Source: Tubulanus polymorphus (taxonomy: Eukaryota > Nemertea > Palaeonemertea > Tubulaniformes > Tubulanidae). From it: a stretch of 64,000 nucleotides of DNA. The translations under genes were made by a program, and so were the position numbers. The notes below the pieces were generated by a model. It made no database searches. It worked only from the letters and a program-made list of their open reading frames with translations, and was not told the origin of the DNA. Shown one piece after another: positions 38,001-49,913 of the stretch (its first letter is position 1; the number at the start of each line of letters is the position of its first letter). Location of the stretch: assembly GCF_964204645.1 (NCBI RefSeq), contig NC_134032.1, positions 1,514,916 through 1,578,915 of the forward strand. The letters run 5' to 3'.

Positions 38001-41000
38001 ATCATCACGTTTCCGAAATTGCGACGCGTAAAATATTGTCTGAAAATCAGTCGTTTTTTCCTGTGACTAATAATTGTAGATAGTTTGGCAACCACGGAAC
38101 CGCCATTCAGGAGACCAGGTAGTCCGATACACCACTACATAACGCGTTATAGGCTTCATGCGGCGAATTTATTTTTTTCTAATATAAGAAAAATTATATG
38201 GTGTTTGGTTTGGCTTGGCTGGTTAGCTTTTCTGAATTGATTGTACTTTTTGAACATAACGGGCATCTTGTTACTATAGCGGTTTGCATTTAAACTCAAC
38301 CTTCAAAACATAAATAGCGAATAACTAAAATTTATGAAATTCGGTTCACTTTTCATCGTATCCAATATACAAATTTCGTCGATCGGCGAATGTCCATTAT
38401 TCTCTACAGCCTGTTCTGAAATTTAATGTGGTATTTTTGGTTATGAATGCATCAATTCCTGGCTCTGTCCGTCTATCTATGGTGATGGTTAATTCATGAC
38501 TCTCGAATCCTGCCCGACCGGATATTACGTTTTACCGCATTATTCTTAATTGTTTTGGTTCGGGATTCTTTTTTTTTGTATTCAATGTTGATCGTCGTGT
38601 ATTCATTAAATTACATTACCAAAAATGGTGTTGTGTACGCCATCTATCGTCGTGATTATTTTGCATGCCAGAGGCGGTGTCGGCCAAATGTTTGTTGCAA
38701 AATCAAAACGATCGTATATCAACGTACTACATTCATACTTCGTGTCAAAACTATTTCCAAAATATGAAGGTCTTTAACGGGTGGAATATCTGAAGATTTA
38801 CCTGCCCCTCCTCAAGCCGATTGGTTTCTGGTTCACACACAAAACCTTTTCCAATCGTTGATTAAGTCGTATGGTTCGAATGTATATATATATATATATA
38901 TATATATATATATATATATATATATATATATATATATATATATATATATATATATATATATATATATATATATATATATATATATATATATATATATATA
39001 TATATATATATATATATATATATATATATATATATATATATATATATATATATATATATATATATATATATATATATATATATATATATATATATATATA
39101 TATATATATATATATATATATATATATATATATATATTTATATGTCAATATTATTATCATCATCATACATATAGTTATGACAATTATCATTAATTATCTG
39201 ATTATCATTATTATGATTATTGTTATTATTATCACTATGATTATCAGAATTATTACACAGCATACTAACTGACTCTGCCGCACATTAACACCAGAGTGAG
39301 CCTCAGCACTAGTTCTTGACCGAATCTCGGTGCTTAACATAGATAGAACACCCGGTTTAACGTCTCAAAGCACGACTCAGTTCCGCAGAGTTCGGTAAAG
39401 TTAGTCGAATTAATGATTGTTTTAACCGTTGAGTGGAATTCTACCCGTGAATCGTCGGTCGCCGGTCGTGAATTGATCGGTCGCCGTGGCTTATGCCGGA
39501 TTCTCACCGCAGTTGCAGCCATTTTGATTTTATGAAAAAGTGCATGAATTACACATTTATAAGTGGGTGATTAAGTAATTGCTTTAATTAACCATACGCT
39601 TATCTGGCGAGCGGTTTTGTAGTGGTGCAATATATTTCAAGGCCAAATTAATGCTTTTTAGTTCCCGGTTGTTCGCCTGATCATGACGTCATCACCTGGC
39701 CTAATTTTAACTGTAGACTAGTGCGCGCTTATAGTGTGTTCTGTATCTAGGGTTAATTCGCATTAATTTCCACAAGGTGCGTTATCAATCTGATAGAAAC
39801 TCTGATTCAACATTCAGCGCCTGACAAACTCCAGCCGCTTTCACACGTCCACTATTTCGGCCCGTGTCGAGCTTGTCAAATTTGTCCCGTGTCGGATAAG
39901 AGGTAAAGATTTACATGTTTTGGCAAATAGGGCAACCGGAAATAGTCTCCACAATAATGACGTAGTGATAACGATAAGTTCTTTCGGCCAGATTATGACT
40001 TCCGGTAGATGTCGTTAACGTGTGTTCTCGAATTCTTAGCCGAAAGGAAAAACCAGCAAAAAAAAAACGCCGAAATATTTTCCCGGCCCAAACCTCTCGA
40101 TCTTCTTGTTTGTTTTGCAGGTGAACGTGATTGTGGAGAATGGACGGCAACCGCGAGCCACCAAGTCAATGATACCCGACCCGAAAGGAAAAGAAAAAGC
40201 GCGGCGCATCGATAAAATATCGCGGAAACTTTTCCCGCTGTCGTTTCTCATATTCAACGTAGTTTACTGGGTGGTTTACCTTATTACATAAACAGTCGTT
40301 ACGTGGCGCCATCTAGCCTCGACTGGACGAAACGTTATAAAGATCGTCTGTCATATTCCGTACTGCGCCATAACCATTGAAACTGTTCATATAGTCGTCG
40401 ATAGAGGGCGTTGTGTGTCTGTAGCTTAGCAGATGACGCGGTCATGGAGAATCTGATTGGTCCGAATTCGTTTCGGCCAATCGATCCCTAAATATGGCCA
40501 CGAGGTTATTCAAAATGGCGGCTCAGTAACCGCTACGATAAATAATGTATTTTTGATGCGATATATTTTCTTGATGACGTCATGTGCGGTGTTTCCCGCG
40601 GTATCATCTGCTAGGCTATATGAACAACAGACAAATTATCCGCAACTGACCAGTGGCGACCTCTGTCGACAGCGCGTGTAGATTCATACAGTGCATATAT
40701 AGCTTAATGGAAGGCTAATGATTGTCGTTAAGAAAATATTGTGAATATTTAAAAAAAAACCCAAGGTAGTATAATATCATAAAACAATGTAACTTATACA
40801 ATGTATTTGTATATACAATATATAATATGTAGATAATAGTCTGCAGTTTTATAGACGGTTGATGAACTAGAACCGAACTTGGATAAATCGCTTTGAAATC
40901 TTGAAATCCAATCGTAAATTGGCGTTTGAACTTTGACCTTATTCGGCACATGCCGTCTATCTGGTAATACAAGAATTCGTGTTTAAATAATAATGAGGTA

Positions 41001-49913: not shown

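What the first reader, a model, noticed from the sequence alone, without database searches (positions are those of the whole stretch)
40121..49913. Three alternative terminal exons, each with its own M4 and stop, in one Cys-loop receptor gene
Exons at 40121-40291, 47339-47506 and 49740-49913 each have a good phase-0 acceptor, a family-typical ENG... start, an (A)R(R/K)IDK lead, a complete M4 (FN..YW/WW) and their own stop. No further M1-M3 exons lie between them, so they are alternative last exons of the gene that ends exon 8 in phase 0, not three genes. Known members of the family have a single M4 exon; choosing M4 and the end of the intracellular loop by alternative last exons, coupled to alternative polyadenylation, is to my knowledge not a described mode for this family. 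M4 affects assembly, lipid contact and gating; the intracellular loop affects trafficking and conductance.
Basis: partly seen in the sequence, partly recalled or inferred. Interest (0 to 1): 0.9.

Follow-up and report, generated by a model that had tools for sequence, protein, structure and literature searches.

The report
Glycine-receptor-like gene with three M4 exons
A ribbon-worm gene for a glycine-receptor-like chloride channel carries three interchangeable last exons, each encoding its own version of the final membrane helix, so one gene could build channels with different ends; the DNA supports this, but no RNA evidence was available.

Summary
The three terminal exons are real and at the stated coordinates. 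The window matches the nemertean Tubulanus polymorphus: exons spliced from it reproduce a database protein exactly (465 of 465 aa, "glycine receptor subunit alpha-2-like isoform X2"), which ends with the first terminal exon. The other two lie 7.2 and 9.6 kb further on, with intact frames, CAG acceptors, matching phase and Pfam M4 scores like the first. No other receptor exons, nor relics beyond chance, were found near them. Of 26 genes paired with M4 exons genome-wide (candidate lists, lower bounds), 25 have one and this gene three. Protein likeness persists at saturated synonymous sites, but per-exon support is clear only for exon 2. Novelty is overstated: nematode unc-49 and avr-14 already choose alternative 3' modules, though those swap the channel domain, not M4 alone. 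Use of terminal exons 2 and 3 in RNA is unproven. Verdict: a new variant of a known kind.

The parts
16907..17034 (+). exon 1: start codon, signal peptide (by look), basic linker
   Evidence: exact match to P0001
22362..22409 (+). exon 2: linker
   Evidence: exact match to P0001
24625..24683 (+). exon 3: start of ligand-binding domain
26583..26650 (+). exon 4: ligand-binding domain
27679..27911 (+). exon 5: ligand-binding domain
28305..28387 (+). exon 6: Cys-loop (two cysteines with 13 residues between)
   Evidence: read directly
29097..29231 (+). exon 7, version E1: end of ligand-binding domain before M1
   Evidence: 64% aa identity to E2 over 45 positions; same phase
29300..29431 (+). exon 7, version E2 (in annotated isoform X2)
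   Evidence: of 11 matches in the genome only this locus has two
34354..34721 (+). exon 8: M1, M2, M3 and start of intracellular loop; ends in phase 0
37493..37561 (+). intracellular-loop exon a, 69 nt, phase 0, donor gttagc
   Evidence: exact match to P0001
38080..38118 (+). intracellular-loop exon b, 39 nt, phase 0, donor gtagtc
   Evidence: exact match to P0001
40121..40291 (+). terminal exon L1: end of loop, M4, stop (the one in isoform X2)
47339..47506 (+). terminal exon L2: end of loop, M4, stop
49740..49913 (+). terminal exon L3: end of loop, M4, stop

Best explanation
One glycine-receptor-like (Cys-loop anion channel) subunit gene of a nemertean has acquired two extra copies of its last exon, most simply by tandem exon duplication, and keeps them as alternative last exons. 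Transcripts share exons 1-8, with E1 or E2 at exon 7 and optional loop exons a and b, and then splice in phase 0 to L1, L2 or L3. Each last exon supplies its own end of the intracellular loop, M4 helix, stop codon and 3' UTR. Shown from sequence: exon integrity, phase compatibility, no rival host gene found, three ends here against one in each of 25 other paired genes, and use of L1 in an annotated protein. Inferred: that L2 and L3 are spliced into mRNA, that the choice is tied to polyadenylation, and that isoforms differ in assembly, lipid contact or trafficking.
For: P0001 equals exons 1-6+E2+8+a+b+L1 letter for letter. 24 of 24 exon combinations are open. Acceptors of L1, L2 and L3 rank 5, 137 and 122 of 2971 AG sites with a matrix from nine confirmed exons, whose own left-out ranks run from 46 to 1002. 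Amino-acid identity is 33/53, 23/55 and 28/54 (L1-L2, L1-L3, L2-L3) at 57, 52 and 56% DNA identity. Neutral drift to the same third-position divergence reaches that in 0, 9 and 0 of 2000 runs and leaves a stop in 93-94% of runs. The longest DNA repeat shared by the three copies is a 71-nt M4 core; no intron repeat in register with the exons was listed (ungapped, minimum 25 nt). Of 26 genes given an M4 exon, only this one has more than one. Relics of upstream exons in 40292-53400: 9 queries against 100 shuffles each, lowest rank 5 of 100.
Against: No transcript for L2 or L3 was seen. A search with both tails found only P0001 and one flatworm protein among 32 candidates; a shorter query found no candidate. 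Neither is decisive: clustering at 90% can hide L2 and L3 isoforms, and no positive control was run. P0001's cluster has 5 members, of which only the representative was visible. Per-branch counts show third-position excess only for L2 (4,3,14; p 0.002), not L1 (10,8,10) or L3 (11,9,10), and the L1-L3 pair is not significant (p 0.13). In a tree of 28 M4 tails the three exons are not one clade: L1 falls with a Lineus tail (0.71), L2 with L3 (0.31) near a leech tail (0.82). Poly(A) signals are no better than chance. The distances from exon 8 (5.4, 12.6, 15.0 kb) are larger than in the other 25 genes (0.13-3.3 kb).
Confidence: 0.7

Rival explanations
1. L2 and L3 are leftover last exons of tandem whole-gene copies whose other exons have been lost; only L1 is used today.
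For: Tandem receptor clusters exist elsewhere in this genome, e.g. four M1-M3 exons on the plus strand within C5:6127769-6168901. Constraint measured on L2 and L3 could date from an earlier time. The M4 tree does not join L1 with L2 and L3 (weak support), so the split may be old.
Against: No trace of other exons in 40292-53400 beyond shuffled controls (exon 2 was not among the nine queries). Both frames, stops and acceptors are intact although synonymous sites look saturated. Phase matches exon 8.
Confidence: 0.19
2. L2 and L3 belong to a separate transcription unit or are joined in trans or by read-through to another gene.
For: They lie far from exon 8 (12.6 and 15.0 kb).
Against: No other M1-M3 exon listed within about 1.18 Mb on this contig. 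The next gene found is an OATP-type transporter on the minus strand, with matching ORFs from 53461 upward. Three ORFs between the terminal exons gave no Pfam match at E 1 (only these 3 of the ORFs there were tested).
Confidence: 0.06
3. An assembly or haplotype artefact placed or duplicated the exons.
For: None found; reads were not available.
Against: Copies share only about 52-57% of DNA letters, L2 DNA has one match in the genome search, and the window holds no N, so this does not look like duplicated haplotype sequence.
Confidence: 0.03

Closest known systems
Caenorhabditis elegans unc-49 GABA-A receptor locus
   Same: One shared 5' part is spliced to one of three alternative 3' blocks (PMC6920096, passages and a legend seen).
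   Different: There the blocks carry several exons with distinct binding-site and transmembrane segments. Here only the end of the loop and M4 are exchanged; M1-M3 are shared.
Nematode avr-14 (GluCl alpha3A/alpha3B)
   Different: Two forms, divergent from the channel domain on; not M4 alone.
Insect RDL, GluCl and nAChR alternative exons
   Same: Alternative exons, thought to come from tandem duplication, in Cys-loop genes: RDL exons 3 and 6, GluCl exon 3, nAChR alpha4 exon 4 and alpha6 (PMC2064938, passages), Bombyx alpha8 exon 7 (PMC2045683, passages). The E1/E2 pair here resembles these.
   Different: Those are internal exons; no M4 or terminal alternatives in the passages read.
Transcripts without M4 (louse Phh-hocas-2 and -3; Bombyx alpha5)
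   Same: Variation at the 3' end of a Cys-loop transcript (PMC11275251 and PMC2045683, passages).
   Different: They lack M4; here each end has a complete M4.
Vertebrate glycine receptor alpha subunits
   Same: Closest solved structures (GlyR alpha3, E 2.3e-113); optional inserts in the M3-M4 loop as in alpha1ins and alpha3L (PMC4891346, passages).
   Different: I know of no alternative M4 exons in vertebrate GlyR genes (recalled, not searched gene by gene).

Membership tests
Cys-loop anion-channel subunit, glycine-receptor-like | Cys-loop of two cysteines 13 residues apart | tested here: met
   read in exon 6
Cys-loop anion-channel subunit, glycine-receptor-like | PAR motif before M2 | tested here: met
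   AIPARVS in exon 8; motif meaning as in a passage of PMC2064938
Cys-loop anion-channel subunit, glycine-receptor-like | Second cysteine pair of glycine receptors before M1 | tested here: met
   aligned in register with GlyR alpha3; that this pair marks GlyR is recalled
Cys-loop anion-channel subunit, glycine-receptor-like | Ligand (glycine, glutamate, GABA or other) | not testable with these tools
   needs expression
Alternative last exon set | Shared upstream exons, phase-compatible with each end | tested here: met
   24 of 24 combinations open
Alternative last exon set | Own 3' splice site and own stop | tested here: met
   (consensus only, no RNA)
Alternative last exon set | Own poly(A) site | tested here: inconclusive
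   first AATAAA at 1292, 560 and 349 nt after the stops; chance density
Alternative last exon set | Each end found in mRNA | tested here: inconclusive
   L1 in annotated X2; L2 and L3 not found by searches that can miss them
unc-49/avr-14-type alternative C-terminal modules | Each module carries its own transmembrane domain from M1 on | tested here: not met
   only one M1-M3 exon found at the locus

The most novel reading that the evidence does not exclude
A single glycine-receptor-like gene uses M4 as an exchangeable module: three alternative last exons swap the lipid-facing helix and the membrane-proximal loop while M1-M3 stay constant. Combined with an alternative binding-domain exon and two optional loop exons, one locus can encode up to 24 subunits in which agonist-site and M4 choices are independent.
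Probability: 0.55. Interest if true: 0.65.

Novelty: new variant of a known kind. Interest (0 to 1): 0.55.

Why it matters
M4 is the outer helix of pentameric channels, and its role in assembly, lipid sensing and gating is usually studied by mutagenesis (recalled). A gene that swaps only M4 would offer three natural versions on one constant core. It would also extend the nematode pattern of alternative channel ends to a smaller unit in another phylum.

Tried and rejected
Decayed neighbouring gene copies: searched for relics of nine upstream pieces in 40292-53400 against 100 dinucleotide shuffles each. The best ranks were exon 4 (5 of 100 shuffles as good, minus strand) and exon 8 (20 of 100, a 12-residue match at 41238-41273); with nine queries I take both as chance. 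A short resemblance to exon 3 at 56097-56141 (E 0.073) showed no AG acceptor at its edge by eye and was dropped.

Other species: among 120 fetched relatives (the listed part of 2646 hits), I looked at pairs with at least 93% identity over at least 150 residues. None shows two different M4 ends on one upstream part. The one pair with unlike ends, P0018/P0051, comes from two tubeworm species, and one of its ends is not M4-like. Clustering at 90% limits this test.

Tree of 28 M4 tails (FastTree): 10 of the 20 fetched M4 regions of this genome plus P0011, L1-L3 and 14 tails of other species; the other 10 regions were left out. It is too short to resolve and does not join L1 with L2 and L3. An IQ-TREE run timed out.

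Genome pairing: 29 M4-like places typed; one (C5:23142026, E 0.11, stop inside) had no partner and is counted as noise. Of the 38 exon-8 places, 12 received no M4; several are first halves of split exons, but at least two loci (near C5:7986876 and C5:9062367) have no M4 assigned. The other members among the 83 PF02932 matches were not paired.

dN/dS: dS could be computed for one pair only (1.92) and looks saturated, so only dN (0.40-0.63, NG86) is used; YN00 failed. The first acceptor ranking used a wrong start for exon 2, and the first isoform script a wrong end for exon 1; corrected.

Literature: ten searches. Two that joined last-exon terms with channel terms gave 0 papers. Of the 26 papers (20 listed), passages of five were read. 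In all, passages of eight papers were read, none in full; the rest were seen as listings. Only one open-access library was searched, so absence in print is not established.

Full report
WHAT AND WHERE. The window is C8:1514916-1578915 of a 267.8-Mb assembly. Its contig length, 16,677,571, equals that of the contig behind P0001, a protein named glycine receptor subunit alpha-2-like isoform X2 of Tubulanus polymorphus. Exons read from the window reproduce P0001 exactly, 465 of 465 residues. I therefore take the source to be this palaeonemertean (lineage). The next gene found is an OATP-type transporter on the minus strand, with matching ORFs between 53461 and 63204, so the terminal exons lie before it.

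THE OBSERVATION. L1 (40121-40291), L2 (47339-47506) and L3 (49740-49913) are as described. They are the only strong M4 matches in six frames of the window (the profile included them), and Pfam's own profile scores them alike: 26.8, 27.5 and 25.4 bits.

The annotated isoform X2 has two small exons between exon 8 and L1: 37493-37561 (69 nt) and 38080-38118 (39 nt), phase 0 at both ends, with donors gttagc and gtagtc that look weak. Exon 7 exists in two versions 68 bp apart, E1 and E2, 64% identical in protein; X2 uses E2. Among 11 matches to E2 in the genome, only this locus has two. Together, 2 x 4 x 3 = 24 combinations are all open. Which of them are made is unknown.

IS IT ONE GENE? No other upstream exon of this receptor was found near L2 or L3: direct search, genome-wide search with exon 8 (38 places, nearest on this contig about 1.18 Mb away), and a relic search against 100 shuffles for nine pieces. 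I then paired M4-like places in the genome (29 typed in; those fall among them) with the nearest M1-M3 place upstream on the same strand. 28 of 29 were assigned, to 26 genes: three to this gene and one to each of the other 25. The one left over has a stop inside. Candidate lists are limited, so these are lower bounds, and at least two exon-8 loci got no M4. The closest paralogue, C8:368736 (80% identical in exon 8), shows one M4 and one exon 7 in the 38 kb fetched around it.

ARE L2 AND L3 UNDER CONSTRAINT? Amino-acid identity is 33/53 (L1-L2), 23/55 (L1-L3) and 28/54 (L2-L3), while 35, 32 and 36 third positions differ. Drift simulations matched to that divergence reached the observed identity in 0, 9 and 0 of 2000 runs, and 93-94% of runs contained a stop. 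The repeat search lists a 71-nt M4 core as the one repeat shared by all three exons; the other families are a 56-nt local repeat at L3 and four short ones (26-32 nt) elsewhere. Against this, third-position excess on single branches is significant only for L2 (p 0.0018; L1 p 0.46, L3 p 0.57), and the L1-L3 pair gives p 0.13. L3 is therefore less well supported than L2 by this test.

SIGNALS. With a matrix from nine confirmed acceptors, L1 ranks 5th, L3 122nd and L2 137th of 2971 AG sites; the confirmed exons themselves, left out one by one, rank 46 to 1002. The first AATAAA lies 1292, 560 and 349 nt after the stops, unremarkable at 0.94 per kb.

HOW IT MOST LIKELY WORKS (inference). L1, first in line and with the highest-ranked acceptor, would be the default. 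L2 and L3 would be reached when L1 is skipped and its poly(A) site not used, for example in particular neurons or stages. Because L1-L3 also replace the membrane-proximal loop ahead of M4, isoforms should differ in trafficking or assembly as well as in the lipid-facing helix.

TRANSCRIPT EVIDENCE. None for L2 or L3. The tail search gave P0001 and one Macrostomum protein, P0021, among 32 candidates; a fragment-sized query gave no candidate; no positive control was run. Of the 16 possible L2 and L3 isoforms, 12 are at least 90% identical to X2 by the shorter length and 6 by the longer, so many could be hidden in its 5-member cluster. E1+L3 forms (0.88-0.90 by the shorter length) would fall outside, and no such T. 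polymorphus entry appears among the 120 listed of 2646 hits, a weak negative.

AGE. L1 is 73% identical to the tail of the Lineus protein P0002 but 62% to L2 and 41% to L3. A tree of 28 tails groups L1 with Lineus (0.71) and L2 with L3 (0.31), the latter two near a leech tail (0.82), not with L1. This hints that the copies are old or that L2 and L3 evolved faster; it does not support a recent duplication of L1. No other nemertean genome could be searched.

KNOWN KINDS. Unc-49 has three alternative 3' blocks (PMC6920096, passages and legend), and avr-14 two forms (PMC3144221, PMC4095040, passages). So alternative channel ends are known in the superfamily. In those cases the transmembrane part as a whole changes. 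I saw no description of M4 alone being exchanged in the searches listed under Tried and rejected, which cover only one open-access library.

VERDICT. Observation confirmed; interpretation as alternative last exons of one gene well supported by sequence and not proven by RNA; novelty reduced to a new variant of a known kind.

Noticed in passing
29097-29231 and 29300-29431: Exon 7 (binding domain before M1) exists in two versions 68 bp apart. Owenia relatives P0010 and P0014 differ in this same segment, and P0003 and P0008 carry two copies of it in one predicted protein, which suggests an alternative pair there too.
   Followed up: partly
37493-37561 and 38080-38118: Two short phase-0 exons in the M3-M4 loop with weak-looking donors, possibly optional.
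   Followed up: partly
49881-49936 and 49938-49993: A 56-nt piece spanning the end of L3 and its stop is repeated in tandem at 95% identity just downstream; probably a recent local duplication in the 3' UTR.
   Followed up: no
about 35150-36200: A long tandem array in the intron after exon 8, seen up to 35900; long open frames through it appear.
   Followed up: no
53461-63204, minus strand: ORFs matching an OATP-type organic anion transporter, one with a Kazal domain.
   Followed up: partly
P0018 (Ridgeia piscesae): A predicted protein with two successive M1-M3 segments before a single M4; either a fused gene model or another tandem arrangement.
   Followed up: no
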